Positions 4,758 through 37,809 of a stretch of 43,373 nucleotides of DNA are shown one piece after another. The position numbers were made by a program, and so were the translations under genes. Under the pieces are notes generated by a model. It saw only the letters and a list, made by a program, of their open reading frames with translations, searched no databases and was not told the DNA's origin. The stretch covers positions 1 to 43,373 of the IMG/VR virus record IMGVR_UViG_3300032770_000041; one strand, written 5' to 3'. Position 1 is the stretch's first letter. Each line of letters opens with the position of its first letter. Origin of the DNA: a virus.

Positions 4758-7700
4758 CTAGTGACCTGACGCCGCTCGCTTGAGCTGCGCGCGCCATGTC
4801 TGGCGCTGGGTTTCGCCCTGCGACAACATCTGCTCCTGCAACTTCACATCGGGCGCCTCGACGGCGGCGCGGGCGGCGTTCTCGAGGAGCTGCTGCTGGA
4901 CGAGCCGCGTGACCTCCGCGGGGTCCATCTTCGCCAGCTCCGGGTCCTGCGCCATCGCGGTCTGCGCGAGGGTCTCGGCCGCCTGATACCGCGGATCTGC
5001 CATCTCGAACTGCACCGCCTGCCGGGCCGCGTGGCCGCGGATCTGGGCCCGCTGCTGGTAGGTCTCGTCGCTCTCGTCCGGCAGCCGCTTGGTGGTCGGC
5101 ATCAGCGCACCGACGCGCACCACCTCGCGGAGCTGGGGATCCTCGTCGGTCGGATCCGGCCGCGAGCCGAAGGGATTGACGAGGGTGTTGACCGGGCTCC
5201 GCTGCTCGGGCACCGGGTCGCCCCAGATGTTGAGCCGGGGCATCGTGCCCGCGCGTGTCACCGGCAGGTTGCCGCGGACGTCCTGCCCGAGCCCGTGCGG
5301 CCGGCGCTGCAGGGTGTCGGCGGCCTCTGCGATGTGCGTGACGAGGTTCGCCCCCGGGATCAGCGCCGAGCCGAGCTGCTGGCCCCAGCGCGCGCCGGCG
5401 CCGAGCGGATCCGCCACAGCTTCGGTGGCCGACTGCGTCCCGCGCATGAAGCTTTCCTGCGCCGCCACGGCCGGCATCGAGGTCAAGGCCGCGAGCGCCT
5501 GCTGGCCGGTCGTGAGCTCCGGCTTCCGGAAGGCCTGCGCGGTCACCGCGCCGGCCGCGATCGGGAAGCCCAGCGGGCCCAGCGCCAGCAGGCTGTGCCA
5601 GCGGCCGAAGAGCTTGATCTGGAAGCTGGCCGCGTTCTGCGCGTCCCGCGCCTGCCGCTCCCGTGGATCGGTCGTCGGGCCGCCGGTCAGGATCCCGTGC
5701 TGGGCCGCCTTGAGGCCGAGGTAGTAGAGCGCCGAGCCCACGCCGAGCCGGCTCGCCCGGGTCAGGAACTGCGCCTGCAGCGCCTGCCGCTCGGCCGCCG
5801 GCGCGGCATCCTGCACGGCGCGCATCAGCCGGATCAGGCTCGCGCTCGTCGGGCCGATCCCGAGCGGGGTGGTCTCGAGACCGCGGCCGATGATGTTGGT
5901 CGAGATCTTCACGAACGGCGCCAGCGCCTCGCTCGCGAGGTACGCCCCGCGGGCCGCGAGGTTGGCGTGGCCCTTGAGCGCGCCCTCCTGCTGCGCGTTG
6001 GCGAGGAACTGCTTCAGCCGGTTCATGCCGGTCGCCAGCGCATTCTTCGCGAGGAACGTGGCGTGGTCGGCATCGCTCATCGCGCCGGCCTGCATCTCGT
6101 CGGTCGGGTTCGCCGCGAGCTCGCGGACCCGGGCGCGGTAGGCGTCCCCCACCAGCGGCTTCCCGCCGGTCACCGGCGCCGCGGCGGCGCGCGCTTCCTC
6201 ATTGGCCTGCAGGATCGCCCGCTCCCAGAGGCTCTGCTGGTAGGCCGGCTGCCAGCCGAGCCGGTGCAGGAGCCCGTGGGTCCGGCCCACCGCGTTCTCG
6301 TAGACGTCGAGCGCCTGCATCCCGTGGTAGTAGGCCTTCCCCAGCGTGCCGTCCGGCTCTTCGACCGGCACGTTGGTGACCTCGCCCCGCTCCAAGATGC
6401 CCGTCCCGCGGCCGCCGCCCGGCACCGGCTCGCCGTGCAGGATCCGCTCGCCCTCGGTGCCGATACCGCGGATCGCGGCCTTCGCCGCCTCGCCGCGGAA
6501 CTCCCCGAGCAGCGCCCGGCTCCGCACGCCGGTGTAGGTCTGCAGCATCCGATCGGCCAGCACCTCGAGCGCGCGCGTCGGGCCGGCGTGGAACATCCAC
6601 AGGTCGGCCTGCGAGCCGGTGAGGATCCGACCCGCGGTGGTGAGCGAGCTGATCAGGTTGGTCTTGAAGAACCGGGCCAGCTTCTGGGCGGCCGTGGCCT
6701 GCTTGAGGCTCGCCACATAGCGCGACAGGCCCTCGACGTCCTTCGCCTCGAGCAGCGCATTGATCCGGGTCCGCACGGTGTCGGGCAGCTTGTCGTAGTC
6801 GTCGCCCAGCAGCCGGAGCGCGCGGATGTGCCACGCGGTGGGATCCAGCGTCTGGCTCGCGAGGATCCGGTTGTACGCGAGATCGCGGCCCTGCGCGGTG
6901 CCTGAGAGCATCGCCTTCCGGGTCCGGTCGTCCACCTGATCCTGCAGCCGCCGGAGCTGGGCGTCGAGCGCGACGTTGTCGGGATCCAGCTCGGCCTGCT
7001 TTCCGAGCGCCACCAGCCGCTCGTTCTGCACGTTCAGGAGGATCCGGTGCGCGAGTCGCTCGTCGCCGGTCAGCCGGTTGAGCGGGATCCGGTCGAGCGC
7101 CGCAGGATCCGCGGCGATCTTCTGCGCGTTGGCGAGCGCGACGTCGAAGCCGCGCACCCCGCGGCCCTCGGGATAGATCCGCGCGACGGTGCGCTGGATC
7201 GCGGCCTCGAGCGAGGCACGCTCCTCCGGCGTCCGCGGATCCATCCGATCGATGTTGAGGAAGTCGGTGGGATCCACCATCCCACCGAGGTGCGCCTGCT
7301 CGGCGCTGAGCTCGGGCAGGTGCGGCGCGGCCATCGGCCGGCCGGACTCCGGCAGGCCTTCGGCTTCGGGCGCTACGGCCTCGGGGGCCGGGGCTGCAGC
7401 AGGCTCTTCCCCACCGCGGAGGGCGAGGCCCCCCGCGAGGACGCCGGCCGCCCCGCCGAGGAGTGCGTTGCGGACCCGCTCGCCGGGCGTGTCGCCGGTG
7501 GCGTAGCCCCCGGCAGCCCCAGCCCCGGCGCCAGCGAGTGCTCCGACGACTTGGCGGGCCGCGACGGCTCGCTGGGGGGATTGGGCGCCGAAGAAGGGTC
7601 GCCTACGAAGGGCCGCGGCAGCCCGTTCAGCCGGTGTAACAGGCCCAAGGTCGCGTCCAGCGAGCTCGGTGGCGTAGCGTCGGGCGAGGTCGTCGCGGGC

Positions 7701-34805: not shown

Positions 34806-35111
34806 ATGGACACACAGCAGCAAGCAGCGGGCAGCCGGCTCAACGAGCCCTCGATCACCCGGCGGGTGATGACGGCCTGCCAGCGGCTCGAGCAGCGCCA
34901 CCTCGACGCCCTCGAGGCGGCGCGCGCGGTGGTCGAGGCGATCCAGCCGTTCGCGCCGACGATCATCAAGCTGGTGCGGCAGCACAGCGAGGGCGGGCAG
35001 GCCGCGGCGGCCGATCTGGCCGACGTGCTGGCCGAGTGGGACGCCGCCAAGGCGGCGTGGCGCGAGGCCGGCGAGGAGCTCGTGCAGCTCCAGCGCGCGG
35101 TGACCGCGTGA
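34806..35111 (+). CDS. Helical leader protein of the modification operon (101 aa)
   Basis: Starts at the ATG after GGGGGAG; the frame is open further upstream but through the hairpin leader. Entirely helical in appearance, with acidic and Ala-rich heptads (EQRHLDALEAARAVVEAIQ, about 29-47, and AEWDAAKAAWREAGEEL). Probably an oligomeric small protein; no catalytic motif. Its stop overlaps the next GTG, coupling it to the TGT-like gene. Confidence 0.75.
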   Translation: MDTQQQAAGSRLNEPSITRRVMTACQRLEQRHLDALEAARAVVEAIQPFAPTIIKLVRQHSEGGQAAAADLADVLAEWDAAKAAWREAGEELVQLQRAVTA

Positions 35112-35764
35112 AGATCCTCCTCGGGGAGTTCACGGGCCGGCGGGTCGAGCGGATCCAGACCCGCGGCTGGGGCCGGATGTGGATGGCGGTGGACCGGCGG
35201 ATCTACACCTACCCGGGCGAGCCGTGGGGCTTCGACAACGCGGCCTTCCGGTACTTCCGTGCCGGCACGCCCTTCGACGGCGAGAGCTACCTCTCGCGCC
35301 TGTTCGCGAAAGCCACCCGGCACGCCGAGCTCGCCGGCGCGCCGACGCTGGCGGTGGTGCCCGACATCGTCGCCGGCGGCGAGCGGTCGCTGATCTTCTC
35401 GCGGCTGTGGGTGGACACCTGCCGCGGCGAGCTGCGGCGCACGTGGCCGTGGTTCCTCGCCGTGCAGGACGGGATGAACCCCACGCAGGTCCGGCGGCAC
35501 CTGAGCGAGTACGACGGCCTGTTCCTCGGCGGATCCGACGCCTTCAAGGCCACGGCCGCGATGTGGTGCCAGCTCGCGCACGACGAGGGCAAGCGGTTCC
35601 ACTACGGCCGCGCCGGCACGGCGGCCAAGCTCGAGCGGGCCTACGCGATCGGCGCCGACTCGCTCGACAGTGCGCTGCCCATGTGGACCGAGGCCCGGTG
35701 GACCAAGTTCGAGCAGCTCATCGACGGGCTCGAGGCGGATGAGAGCCGGAGGGCGGCGGCATGA
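35108..35764 (+). CDS. TGT/DpdA-like 7-deazaguanine transglycosylase (218 aa)
   Basis: GTG start at 35108 in a GTGA overlap. Its key positions line up with the tRNA-guanine transglycosylase barrel: GFDNAAF (D43, like the DSGGF aspartate), VVPDIV (D86, like D156 of the bacterial enzyme), VQDG (Q120, like Q203), and FLGGS (G141-G142, substrate loop). GADSLDSALP (D187) matches the nucleophile in the FDCVLP motif. It is much shorter than tRNA enzymes (about 370 aa) and lacks the CxCxxC...H zinc site. Paralogues called DpdA insert 7-deazaguanines into DNA, so I infer DNA modification with host-derived preQ0 or preQ1. No deazaguanine synthesis genes are present. It ends in an ATGA overlap with the Mom-like gene. 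Confidence 0.68.
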   Translation: MKILLGEFTGRRVERIQTRGWGRMWMAVDRRIYTYPGEPWGFDNAAFRYFRAGTPFDGESYLSRLFAKATRHAELAGAPTLAVVPDIVAGGERSLIFSRLWVDTCRGELRRTWPWFLAVQDGMNPTQVRRHLSEYDGLFLGGSDAFKATAAMWCQLAHDEGKRFHYGRAGTAAKLERAYAIGADSLDSALPMWTEARWTKFEQLIDGLEADESRRAAA

Positions 35765-36552
35765 GTGGCAACCAGCGCTGGCTCGAGGGCCGGGACAGCT
35801 ACCGGCCGCCGCTCGAGCGGATCGACCCGGCCCAGTACGAGGTCGCCCCGCTCGAGTCCGACACCGTGGCCCGCAGCTTCATCGAGCGGCACCACTACTC
35901 GCACAGCTACCCGGCGGCCCGGGTCCGCGTCGGGCTCGCGCGCCGCGGCGAGCTGGTGGGCGTGGCCGTCTTCAGCCAGCCCACCAACGACCGGGCGATC
36001 ACCAACGTCTTCGCCGGCCTCGAGGCCCAGCGGGCCGTCGAGCTCGGCCGGTTCGTGCTGCTGGACGAGGTCCCGGGCAACGGCGAGACATGGTTCCTCG
36101 CCCGCTGCTTCGAGCTGCTCAGAGCCCGCGGGATCTGCGGCGTGCTGAGCTTCTCGGATCCCGTGGCCCGCACCTCGCAGGACGGGCTCACGGTCTTCCC
36201 GGGTCACCTCGGGACGATCTATCAGGCCCACAACGCCCGCTACCTCGGCCGCTCGACGCCGCGGACGCTGGCGCTGCTGCCCGATGGCACGGTGCTGAGT
36301 CCGCGGACGATCCAGAAGATCCGGGCCGGCGAGCGCGGCTGGTGCGGCGCGGCCGACCTGCTCGCGCAGTACGGCGCGGCGCCGATCGGCGCCGACGCCG
36401 GCCGGCGCGAGCGGCTGACGTGGCTGCATCGCGAGCTCGCGCACCTGACGCGGCCGCTGCGGCACGCCGGCAACCACCGTTACGCATGGAGCCTCGTGCG
36501 CCGCCTCGAGCTGCCGGCGCCGCAGGTCTACCCCAAGCAGCTCGTCGCCTGA
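35761..36552 (+). CDS. Mom-like GNAT-fold protein, putative DNA base modifier (263 aa)
   Basis: Resembles the phage Mu Mom family, GNAT-related proteins that convert adenine in DNA to a methylcarbamoyl-type derivative and block restriction. Landmarks as I recognise them: FIERHHYSHSYP (about residues 40-51), ELVGVAVFSQPTN (about 64-76), VELGRFVLLDEVPGN (92-106) continuing into ETWFLAR, GVLSFSDPVAR (about 126-136), and HLGTIYQAHNARYLGR (about 147-162). The C-terminal 80 residues are helical and basic and could bind DNA. Length slightly exceeds Mu Mom. It is translationally coupled to the TGT-like gene, suggesting joint action. Unrelated GNAT chemistry is the alternative. Confidence 0.62.
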   Translation: MSGNQRWLEGRDSYRPPLERIDPAQYEVAPLESDTVARSFIERHHYSHSYPAARVRVGLARRGELVGVAVFSQPTNDRAITNVFAGLEAQRAVELGRFVLLDEVPGNGETWFLARCFELLRARGICGVLSFSDPVARTSQDGLTVFPGHLGTIYQAHNARYLGRSTPRTLALLPDGTVLSPRTIQKIRAGERGWCGAADLLAQYGAAPIGADAGRRERLTWLHRELAHLTRPLRHAGNHRYAWSLVRRLELPAPQVYPKQLVA

Positions 36553-36563
36553 AGGGGGAGCCG

Positions 36564-36788
36564 ATGGATCACCAGACCTCGACGTTCCGGCTGCAGGCCC
36601 GGGACATGGAAGCCAAGCTCGGCCGGGAGCAGGCAGCCAAGCAGGCCACGAAGTTCATGTTCGAGAGCGGCCGCCGCGATCCCGAAGGCCGCTGGTTCTG
36701 GTTCATGGTGCTCGCGTGCCTCGTGGGCGTTGAGCAGGCCGAAGAGCAGCGGGCCAAGCTGACCGTCATCCGTGGAGGTGCCCGATGA
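36564..36788 (+). CDS. Hypothetical protein (74 aa)
   Basis: AAGGGGGAG precedes ATG at a good distance. Helical and basic at the N-terminus (FRLQARDMEAKLGREQAAKQ), with a short hydrophobic patch (WFWFMVLACLVGV, about 46-58) too short for a confident membrane span. Function unknown; part of the modification operon. Confidence 0.7.
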   Translation: MDHQTSTFRLQARDMEAKLGREQAAKQATKFMFESGRRDPEGRWFWFMVLACLVGVEQAEEQRAKLTVIRGGAR

Positions 36789-37177
36789 TCCGCACCAGCT
36801 TCGCGCGCGAGGCGCGCTGGCACATCGTAACCGACCAGCCGGGGCAGCCACTCCTGATCGAGGACGACGGCCCGTGGTCCAGCCACCCGACGATCACCAA
36901 CGACGCCGAGGGGGTGGTGGCGAAACTGGTGGCCCGCGGGATCCTGCCGCCGGGCCGCCGGCTGTTCTACGTGGACAGTGACGGCCGCACCGACGAGCTG
37001 CTCGTCAGGGACAGCCGGTTCGCCGGCTTCGCGCCGGGCCCGATGCCGGTGATCGAGCCGCGGGTCGGCTTCTGCGCCCGGTGCCACGACAACGCGGTGG
37101 CCGAGTGGAGCGAGGAGATGCAGGCGTGGGTCTCGCCGTGCTGCGCCGAGCCGGTGCTGGTCGGAGGTGAGGCGTGA
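36785..37177 (+). CDS. Zinc-site protein of the modification operon (130 aa)
   Basis: Overlaps the previous stop as ATGA. Mixed alpha/beta N-terminal 90 residues, then CARCHD (about 97-102) and a CC pair near residue 119, a probable zinc knuckle. In Mu, the zinc-finger protein Com activates mom translation, but here the sequence is different and the gene is downstream, so that role is only a thought. Unassigned. Confidence 0.7.
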   Translation: MIRTSFAREARWHIVTDQPGQPLLIEDDGPWSSHPTITNDAEGVVAKLVARGILPPGRRLFYVDSDGRTDELLVRDSRFAGFAPGPMPVIEPRVGFCARCHDNAVAEWSEEMQAWVSPCCAEPVLVGGEA

Positions 37178-37386
37178 CCCGCGCCACGGCACGCCCGCTC
37201 CGGCGGGTCGTCGTCGGCCTCCACGGGGAGCTGGTCGCGGAGATCCGCGAGCGCACACTCACGCTGCGGCCGCTCCGGACCCGGCGCGGCGGCCGAGCCG
37301 AGCTCGTGATCCCGTGGGAGTCGATCTACATTCGGTCCTTCCCGGTGCCGCGGCGCCGGCGCACCACGCGAGGGCTCCTCCGGTGA
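37174..37386 (+). CDS. Small basic protein with VVVGLHGE start (70 aa)
   Basis: GTG start at 37174 (GTGA overlap). Reads VVVGLHGELVAEIRERTLTLRP (cited in part) with a following RRGGRAELVIPWESIY and a very basic tail. I recall similar short phage proteins from soil and freshwater phages without function. Possibly nucleic-acid binding. Confidence 0.7.
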   Translation: MTRATARPLRRVVVGLHGELVAEIRERTLTLRPLRTRRGGRAELVIPWESIYIRSFPVPRRRRTTRGLLR

Positions 37387-37583
37387 CCGACACCGAGCAC
37401 TGGCACCTGAACGCGATCGCCCGGGAGGTCCATGCGCTGGCCCGGCACGAGGCCGAGACCGGCCGGCGGCTGCAGGGCTCGACGCCGGCGACCCGCTGGA
37501 TCCTCGAGCACCCCGACACCTATCGCCAGCTCGTGGCCCTCGAGGCCCGCGGGCTCGAGCGCGGAGGCTTCGATGACGACTGA
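37383..37583 (+). CDS. Hypothetical protein (66 aa)
   Basis: GTG start at 37383 (GTGA overlap). Helical, with HLNAIAREVHALARHE and a C-terminal QLVALEARGLERGG helix. Soluble. Unassigned. Confidence 0.65.
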   Translation: MTDTEHWHLNAIAREVHALARHEAETGRRLQGSTPATRWILEHPDTYRQLVALEARGLERGGFDDD

Positions 37584-37809
37584 CACCGTGGCCCGGATCC
37601 GCGCCCAGCTCCGGCGGCACGGGGCGCGCGCAGTCGAGATCGGCTACCACGAGCACACCCTGCGCGTGGCCGCGACCGACATCCTGCTGACCGACGTGCT
37701 CAGGATCGTGGCCGAGTACGCGCCGGTGGCGCGGGTGACCTACGGGAGCTCGAGCCGGCGGGGCGGGGTGCTGGTGATCCTCGTGCTGGCCCAGTTGGCG
37801 GGGCCCTAG
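37573..37809 (+). CDS. Hypothetical protein closing the plus-strand operon (78 aa)
   Basis: GGAGG seven bases before the ATG, with an 11-base overlap onto the previous gene. Alpha/beta pattern: helix TVARIRAQLRRHG, strand AVEIGYHEHTLRV, helix LLTDVLRIVAEYA, strand ARVTYGS, hydrophobic end VLVILVLAQLAG. The stop overlaps the stop of the convergent minus-strand gene by four bases, leaving no room for a separate bidirectional terminator. Confidence 0.68.
   Translation: MTTDTVARIRAQLRRHGARAVEIGYHEHTLRVAATDILLTDVLRIVAEYAPVARVTYGSSSRRGGVLVILVLAQLAGP

What the first reader, a model, noticed from the sequence alone, without database searches (positions are those of the whole stretch)
34806..37809. 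Coupled TGT/DpdA-like and Mom-like genes: a possible two-chemistry DNA modification operon
A minimal transglycosylase-like protein with all TGT active-site positions (D43, D86, Q120, GG141-142, D187) overlaps by ATGA with a GNAT-type protein resembling Mu Mom. The two families make unrelated base modifications (7-deazaguanine and Mom-type adenine), so one co-translated operon would produce doubly modified DNA or a novel hybrid modification. Five small flanking genes, one with a zinc site, may be accessory factors. What is seen is the motifs and overlaps; that both act on phage DNA is inference.
Basis: partly seen in the sequence, partly recalled or inferred. Interest (0 to 1): 0.85.

Follow-up and report, generated by a model that had tools for sequence, protein, structure and literature searches.

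The report
Phage DNA-modification pair: mini-transglycosylase plus Mom
A virus of bacteria carries two overlapping genes that look like two different DNA-base-modifying enzymes, and the same pairing recurs in other viruses, plasmids and bacterial genomes, some with no known supply of the modified base, so the pair probably disguises mobile DNA from bacterial defences by chemistry that is not yet known.

Summary
Genes 35108-35764 (GTG start, 218 aa) and 35761-36552 (263 aa) overlap by 4 nt in an eight-gene plus-strand block (34806-37809). The second is a Mom-family GNAT (Pfam Mom, 88 bits against a cut-off of 27; model closest to the Mu Mom crystal structure). The first is a minimal TGT/DpdA-like barrel: below Pfam's TGT cut-off, but D43, D86, Q120, G141-G142 and D187 are invariant in its relatives, and profile alignment puts D187 on the TGT catalytic Asp.

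The pairing is no accident of this phage. 21 of 105 distinct Mom loci have a TGT-superfamily gene within 6 kb, always on Mom's strand, from three TGT subfamilies; an actinobacterial contig repeats the window's 4-nt overlap. Eleven plasmids have DpdA less than 200 bp before Mom. Mom relatives also occur without TGT and the reverse, which favours two stacked modifications over an obligate hybrid.

Caveats: neither the phage nor eight actinobacterial genomes with the pair have a recognisable 7-deazaguanine supply (no QueC or VUT/YhhQ), so the inserted base is unknown. The small flanking genes are not conserved. A GNAT-TGT module is already reported in BREX-related capture systems. Chemistry untested.

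The parts
35108..35764 (+). minimal TGT/DpdA-like (beta/alpha) barrel, 218 aa, GTG start; phrog_15826 family
   Evidence: phrog_15826 1.3e-22; Pfam TGT 15 bits, below the 26.3 cut-off; active-site motifs invariant in relatives; hhalign to tRNA TGT P 3.2e-5 with D187 on the TGT catalytic Asp; model pLDDT 84.6, best Foldseek match TGT 1wkf
35761..36552 (+). Mom-family GNAT DNA-modification enzyme, 263 aa
   Evidence: Pfam Mom PF25680 7.8e-25, 88.2 bits against cut-off 27.1; phrog_1384 Mom-like 6.5e-31; model pLDDT 88.8, best Foldseek match 8bv8 phage Mu Mom, E 1.9e-10
35761..35764 (+). ATGA stop/start overlap of the two genes (possible translational coupling)
   Evidence: read directly in the sequence; a 4-nt overlap also in L265 and L295 and in Streptomyces plasmid NZ_CP107915
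34806..35111 (+). small gene upstream (101 aa), overlapping the TGT-like gene by GTGA; function unknown, not conserved
   Evidence: gene model; no family; no homologue in fetched loci
36564..37809 (+). five small downstream genes (36564-36788, 36785-37177 with CxxC...CC, 37174-37386, 37383-37583, 37573-37809); same transcription block, no evidence that they belong to the module
   Evidence: gene model; no significant family matches; no homologues in fetched loci

Best explanation
The pair is a DNA-disguise (anti-restriction) cassette that phages and plasmids assemble repeatedly. The small TGT-like enzyme exchanges a guanine of the phage DNA for another purine-like base, most likely a 7-deazaguanine scavenged from the host. 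The Mom enzyme independently acylates adenines (N6-carbamoylmethyl type). Together they put two unrelated marks on the DNA and so block a wider range of host nucleases than either alone. Shown here: the families, the intact active-site motifs, the two folds, the recurrent same-strand pairing and the company of DNA methyltransferases, ParB-like and PAPS-reductase-like genes. Inferred: that both act on phage DNA, that the inserted base is a 7-deazaguanine, and that the two marks are independent.
For: Mom identity by profile and fold. TGT-superfamily identity by motifs, by profile alignment placing D187 on the TGT catalytic Asp, and by TGT as top Foldseek match. Pairing with TGT-superfamily genes in 21 of 105 distinct Mom loci, 21 of 21 on Mom's strand, from three TGT subfamilies; at least 15 label changes on the Mom tree, 6 forced by well-supported branches. 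In 13 phage contigs with both genes, 7 have them within 2 kb where 1.7 are expected, P about 1e-4. Plasmids with DpdA immediately before Mom. Independence: close Mom relatives without TGT and small TGTs without Mom. 7-deazaguanine link of the TGT side: mycophage relatives of the window's TGT, and a plasmid DpdA, sit directly after a VUT/YhhQ queuosine-precursor transporter gene.
Against: No gene for 7-deazaguanine synthesis or import was found in the phage. Eight actinobacterial genomes with the pair lack full-length QueC, tRNA TGT and VUT/YhhQ. A mycophage that encodes DpdA without a preQ0 supply (Orion) had no 7-deazaguanine in its DNA (PMC6884629). The protein fails the Pfam TGT cut-off and shows no PF23859 DpdA match. 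No activity was tested.
Confidence: 0.5

Rival explanations
1. Sequential hybrid: the TGT-like enzyme places a base that carries an amine or other handle into DNA, and the Mom-like GNAT then acylates that base rather than adenine, giving one hypermodified base.
For: Recurrent adjacency and 4-nt overlaps with more than one TGT subfamily. GNATs acylate amines (established knowledge). A GNAT occasionally fused to a TGT is reported in BREX-related capture loci (PMC12839542).
Against: A Mom relative 65% identical occurs on a contig where no TGT relative was found. Paired and unpaired Moms interleave on the tree. No residue clearly separates them: the best column only modestly exceeds label shuffles, which ignore relatedness. 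Mu Mom modifies adenine without such a partner gene (established knowledge).
Confidence: 0.22
2. The TGT-like enzyme uses a base other than a 7-deazaguanine (another purine analogue, or a plain guanine/adenine exchange), which is why the DpdA-Mom pair occurs in genomes with no 7-deazaguanine supply.
For: Eight actinobacterial genomes with the pair, five of them Streptomyces isolates, lack QueC, TGT and VUT/YhhQ, although the DpdA active-site motifs are intact. Phage Orion DNA is unmodified.
Against: Transporter genes next to TGT relatives point to a 7-deazaguanine. Unknown importers or salvage from the surroundings cannot be excluded. A PTPS/QueD-like gene is present in most of these genomes, so an early intermediate could exist.
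Confidence: 0.2
3. The TGT-like protein does not act on DNA but on tRNA or on protein, as in Cap10 of type IV CBASS, and sits beside Mom only because phage anti-defence genes cluster.
For: A TGT-family enzyme remodelled for protein deazaguanylation exists (PMC11996544 abstract). Small TGTs occur without Mom on phages and Pseudomonas plasmids.
Against: Recurrent immediate same-strand pairing with Mom, and shared neighbourhoods with DNA methyltransferases.
Confidence: 0.13
4. Chance neighbours of no joint meaning in this phage.
For: Nearly all genes of the block overlap, so the overlap carries little weight. Most small-TGT contigs have no Mom.
Against: 21 of 105 Mom loci, 21 of 21 same strand, repeated in plasmids and chromosomes; L265 repeats exactly this arrangement.
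Confidence: 0.06

Closest known systems
Phage Mu Mom (PDB 8bv8; Pfam PF25680)
   Same: GNAT fold, profile match far above cut-off, conserved HHY, NGE(S/T), DP and GHxGxIYQA-type motifs
   Different: Sequence identity low (22% in the Foldseek alignment); no com gene recognised beside it; paired with a TGT-like gene; target base untested
DpdA of phages and bacteria (Pfam PF23859, phrog_887, phrog_1279)
   Same: Same superfamily and order of active-site motifs; DpdA proper takes the same place beside Mom in Streptomyces, Sphingomonas and phages
   Different: The window protein is a shorter, separate family (phrog_15826) that PF23859 does not detect; no preQ0 synthesis genes in the phage
'DpdA-like tRNA-guanine transglycosylase' of Fishburnevirus mycophages (GreaseLightnin gp55)
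   Same: Same phrog_15826 family, about 200 aa, about 32% identical
   Different: Preceded by a VUT/YhhQ transporter gene, with no Mom match in the genome
GNAT-TGT module of BREX-Related Capture (BRC) systems (PMC12839542, 2026)
   Same: A GNAT and a TGT together, proposed to mark DNA; a DUF4007 gene lies near the DpdA-Mom pair of plasmid NZ_CP107915
   Different: BRC is a defence locus with PglZ, DUF6079 and HerA; the paper's main text does not contain the word Mom; no such genes were found in the window
Dpd restriction-modification islands (dpdA-K)
   Same: DpdA-type base exchange, ParB-like neighbours in some pairs
   Different: No DpdC or restriction genes seen with the pair; Mom is an extra enzyme

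Membership tests
Mom (PF25680) | profile score above the curated cut-off | tested here: met
   88.2 bits against 27.1
Mom (PF25680) | fold of the solved Mu Mom | tested here: met
   Foldseek rank 1 is 8bv8, E 1.9e-10, TM 0.59/0.69
Mom (PF25680) | catalytic Ser (Mu S124) or equivalent | tested here: inconclusive
   T110 lies in the NGE(S/T) motif and is Ser or Thr in 104 of 105 relatives (where row numbering is 3 lower); that it is Mu S124 rests on an inferred numbering offset of the PDB chain
Mom (PF25680) | makes N6-carbamoylmethyl adenine in DNA | not testable with these tools
   needs LC-MS
TGT (PF01702) | Pfam gathering score | tested here: not met
   15 bits against 26.3 for the window protein; 25.6 bits for relative G011
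TGT/DpdA superfamily | active-site set (TGT D102, D156, Q203, GG229-230, D280 equivalents) | tested here: met
   D43, D86, Q120, G141-G142, D187 invariant; profile alignment covers Q120, GG and D187 and puts D187 on the Asp of GxDMFDC; TGT residue numbers are from general knowledge, and D43/D86 are matched by motif order only
TGT/DpdA superfamily | (beta/alpha)8 barrel most like TGT | tested here: inconclusive
   A barrel; Foldseek ranks TGT first (E 2e-4, TMq 0.57), but VIA-align prefers pyruvate kinase barrels, so the fold alone does not decide
TGT (tRNA type) | C-terminal zinc site CxCxxC...H | tested here: not met
   present in the tRNA TGTs, absent from the 218-aa protein
DpdA (PF23859) | profile match | tested here: not met
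   no PF23859 match at E up to 5; the DpdA next to Mom in L272 matches at 5e-79; profile-profile P 6.6e-4 to the DpdA alignment
phage 7-deazaguanine modification systems | genes for preQ0 synthesis or uptake in the phage | tested here: not met
   none found in the window; host supply unknown
TGT/DpdA superfamily | base exchange on DNA | not testable with these tools
   needs enzyme assay

The most novel reading that the evidence does not exclude
The DpdA/TGT-Mom pair is a joint enzyme system whose product is neither a known 7-deazaguanine nor the known Mom adenine: a base is placed by transglycosylation and then, or alongside, acylated by the Mom-like GNAT, and in QueC-less actinobacteria and their mobile elements the exchanged base is not a 7-deazaguanine at all.
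Probability: 0.25. Interest if true: 0.87.

Novelty: new variant of a known kind. Interest (0 to 1): 0.6.

Why it matters
Each family is known, but in the literature held here I found no report of Mom proper with DpdA/TGT; the nearest is the 2026 GNAT-TGT note in BRC systems. The pairing recurs in phages, linear and circular plasmids and other bacterial genome contigs, and includes Streptomyces isolates with no known preQ0 source. That makes two open questions testable in cultivable organisms: what singleton DpdA-like enzymes insert into DNA, and what Mom relatives modify. It also supplies a compact two-gene candidate for doubly protected DNA.

Tried and rejected
Small flanking genes as accessory factors: no homologues in any fetched locus, no families. 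Horizontal insertion of the block judged by base composition: GC not unusual. Promoter and terminator scan: nothing found, but the consensus may not suit a 71% GC phage. Repeats around the block: only chance-like imperfect repeats. A Mom residue that separates paired from unpaired proteins: none clear, top column 0.31 bit against a 95% shuffle limit of 0.26 without correction for relatedness (the script stopped with an index error after printing these results). PTPS/QueD as a test of 7-deazaguanine supply: not discriminating, since it is absent in Sphingomonas genomes that have QueC and present in most of the QueC-less Streptomyces. Solved structures by sequence for the TGT side: no relative. 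PF23859-type DpdA against tRNA TGT by hhalign: no useful alignment. Defence-protein library: no match for the pair. The BRC paper's supplement, which would show whether its GNATs are Mom, could not be read; several key papers (Cui 2023, Iyer 2009 and 2013, the 2024 7-deazaguanine review) are not in the library.
Full report
What is there. The window is a 43,373-base viral contig with recognisable phage genes: terminase large subunit, portal, major head protein, Erf-like annealing protein, YqaJ/RecE-type exonuclease, replication initiation. A codon-usage gene model puts eight plus-strand genes at 34806-37809 between minus-strand genes. Gene 35108-35764 (GTG start) ends with ATGA shared with gene 35761-36552. 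Because nearly every gene of the block overlaps its neighbour in this way, the overlap by itself says little.

The Mom side. The 263-aa protein scores 88.2 bits with Pfam Mom (cut-off 27.1) and matches phrog_1384, 'Mom-like DNA modification protein'. A profile of 16 sequences finds one solved structure, phage Mu Mom 8bv8, E 9e-16. The AlphaFold model (pLDDT 88.8) also has 8bv8 as its best Foldseek match, E 1.9e-10, ahead of ordinary GNATs. Motifs HHY, NGE(S/T), DP and GHxGxIYQA are conserved. T110 in NGET is Ser or Thr in 104 of 105 relatives; I take it as the counterpart of Mu S124, but the numbering offset is inferred.

The TGT side. The 218-aa protein belongs to phrog_15826 (unknown function, 1.3e-22) and gets only 15 bits from Pfam TGT; a relative on contig G011 reaches 25.6 bits, just under the cut-off. 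In an alignment with six relatives the invariant residues include D43, D86, Q120, G141, G142, H165, R168, D184 and D187. Profile-profile alignment with four tRNA TGTs (P 3.2e-5) lays VQDGM on VQGGM, LGG on IGG, and GADSLDSALP on GVDMFDCVMP, so D187 falls on the catalytic Asp. The model is a barrel (pLDDT 84.6). Foldseek ranks TGTs first, but with modest scores among other barrels, and VIA-align prefers pyruvate kinases, so the fold is compatible, not decisive. The C-terminal zinc site of tRNA TGTs is missing. In the phage collection the same family is annotated 'DpdA-like' in Fishburnevirus mycophages, where it directly follows a gene matching PF02592 (VUT/YhhQ, queuosine-precursor transporter). 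A Nocardia plasmid shows a VUT gene directly before a PF23859-type DpdA. These two contexts link the superfamily in mobile elements to 7-deazaguanine uptake.

Does the pair recur? I collected Mom relatives from viral contigs and from bacterial and archaeal genomes, removed near-copies, and searched their surroundings with profiles of three TGT-superfamily types: the window's small type; DpdA proper (PF23859/phrog_1279); and a canonical phage type (phrog_887). 21 of 105 distinct Mom loci (a long-branch viral group left out) carry one within 6 kb, and all 21 are on Mom's strand. Eleven of these are at most 154 nt away. L265, from an actinobacterial metagenome assembly, repeats the window's arrangement exactly: small TGT 5237-5989, Mom 5986-6879. 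L295 has the 4-nt overlap with a PF23859-type DpdA. L180 has a three-gene plus-strand cassette, DpdA / 219-aa gene (methyltransferase-like by eye, no Pfam match) / Mom, in a minus-strand stretch. In phage contigs searched whole, 13 have both genes and 7 have them within 2 kb, against 1.7 expected if the TGT lay anywhere on its contig (P about 1e-4, or 2e-4 without the 9-kb contig). Some of these contigs were fetched through a TGT or Mom match, so the estimate is rough. On the Mom tree the pairing needs at least 15 changes, 6 forced by well-supported branches.

Plasmids. Comparing hit coordinates, eleven plasmid records have DpdA less than 200 bp before Mom on the same strand: six of Streptomyces/Kitasatospora (NZ_CP108586, NZ_CP109105, NZ_CP107915, AP028456, NZ_CP109456, NZ_CP109462) and five of sphingomonads (NZ_CP101723, NZ_CP037914, NZ_CP117026, NZ_CP060123, NZ_CP033227). 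In NZ_CP108586 the neighbourhood holds ParB, SSB and DprA genes, and the gene after Mom is 39% identical to the PAPS-reductase-like protein that follows Mom in Streptomyces locus L272. In the four regions read, the pair is annotated 'hypothetical protein'.

Is the pair obligate? No. Of 24 other contigs with the small TGT none has a Mom match anywhere on the contig, and of about 25 contigs with PF23859-type DpdA only one has. Contig G012 (L174) carries a Mom 65% identical to the window's with no TGT-superfamily match by four searches (identity). The window's close Mom relative on L178 (62%) is paired with a different TGT family. This is what modular stacking of protections predicts; an obligate hybrid would predict loyal pairs. 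DNA methyltransferases and PAPS-reductase-like genes are comparably common Mom neighbours, so Mom sits in mixed DNA-modification clusters.

The missing substrate. The phage carries no match to VUT/YhhQ or PTPS/QueD, and no QueC, QueE, FolE or QueF family appeared in the family scans of its genes. Among 21 host genomes, eight actinobacterial ones with the pair (five Streptomyces, one Asanoa, one Micromonospora, one actinobacterial MAG) have no full-length QueC (only N-terminal fragments near the cut-off in long frames), no tRNA TGT and no VUT/YhhQ, while the proteobacterial ones mostly have QueC and TGT. PTPS/QueD is not discriminating. Yet the DpdA motifs of L272 are intact. Hutinet et al. found no 7-deazaguanine in DNA of mycophage Orion, which has DpdA but no preQ0 supply (PMC6884629). 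So for these pairs either an unknown supply exists or the exchanged base is something else.

What is known. A 2026 survey of BREX relatives (PMC12839542) describes a defence system, BRC, in which some loci carry a GNAT and a TGT, 'occasionally fused', proposed to mark DNA. Its main text does not contain the word Mom. In plasmid NZ_CP107915 a DUF4007 gene, one of the BRC components, lies about 2 kb before the DpdA-Mom pair, which hints that the two findings meet. Jumbo-phage work describes Mom domains fused to nucleases (PMC7824862). I found no paper describing Mom with DpdA, but several relevant papers are not in the library.

Verdict. The chemistry, the base, the target DNA and the order of action remain untested. 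I rate the two-independent-marks reading at 0.5, a sequential hybrid at 0.22, and a non-7-deazaguanine base at 0.2 (it overlaps with the first two).

Noticed in passing
L004:4373-5534 and L005:3373-4534 (Fishburnevirus mycophages): A VUT/YhhQ-family transporter gene directly precedes the small TGT gene, suggesting a two-gene uptake-and-insertion unit for a 7-deazaguanine base.
   Followed up: partly
L343:4818-5708 (plasmid pND6-1) and about 146 Pseudomonas plasmid records: Relatives of the window's small TGT are widespread on Pseudomonas plasmids, annotated as hypothetical proteins; in pND6-1 no Mom or transporter gene is annotated next to it.
   Followed up: partly
L272:938-9480 and four similar Streptomyces loci (L278, L282, L288, L295): Conserved Streptomyces cluster of DpdA, Mom and a PAPS-reductase-like protein (39% identical homologue on plasmid NZ_CP108586), with a ParB-like gene upstream.
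   Followed up: partly
L347:1214-5703 (plasmid NZ_CP107915): A DUF4007 gene, a component of BREX-related capture systems, lies about 2 kb before an overlapping DpdA-Mom pair; possible link between the phage/plasmid pair and the defence system.
   Followed up: no
window:28186-28800: A histidine phosphatase (PF00300, 2e-32) gene next to the terminase gene, an unusual phage gene.
   Followed up: no
window:2566-2641: tRNA-Met (CAT) gene on the minus strand.
   Followed up: no
L239-L249 (viral contigs with remote Mom relatives): A separate long-branch Mom group with a fixed neighbourhood that includes a chaperonin-like protein and an FKBP-type isomerase-like protein (both by eye); no TGT nearby.
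   Followed up: no
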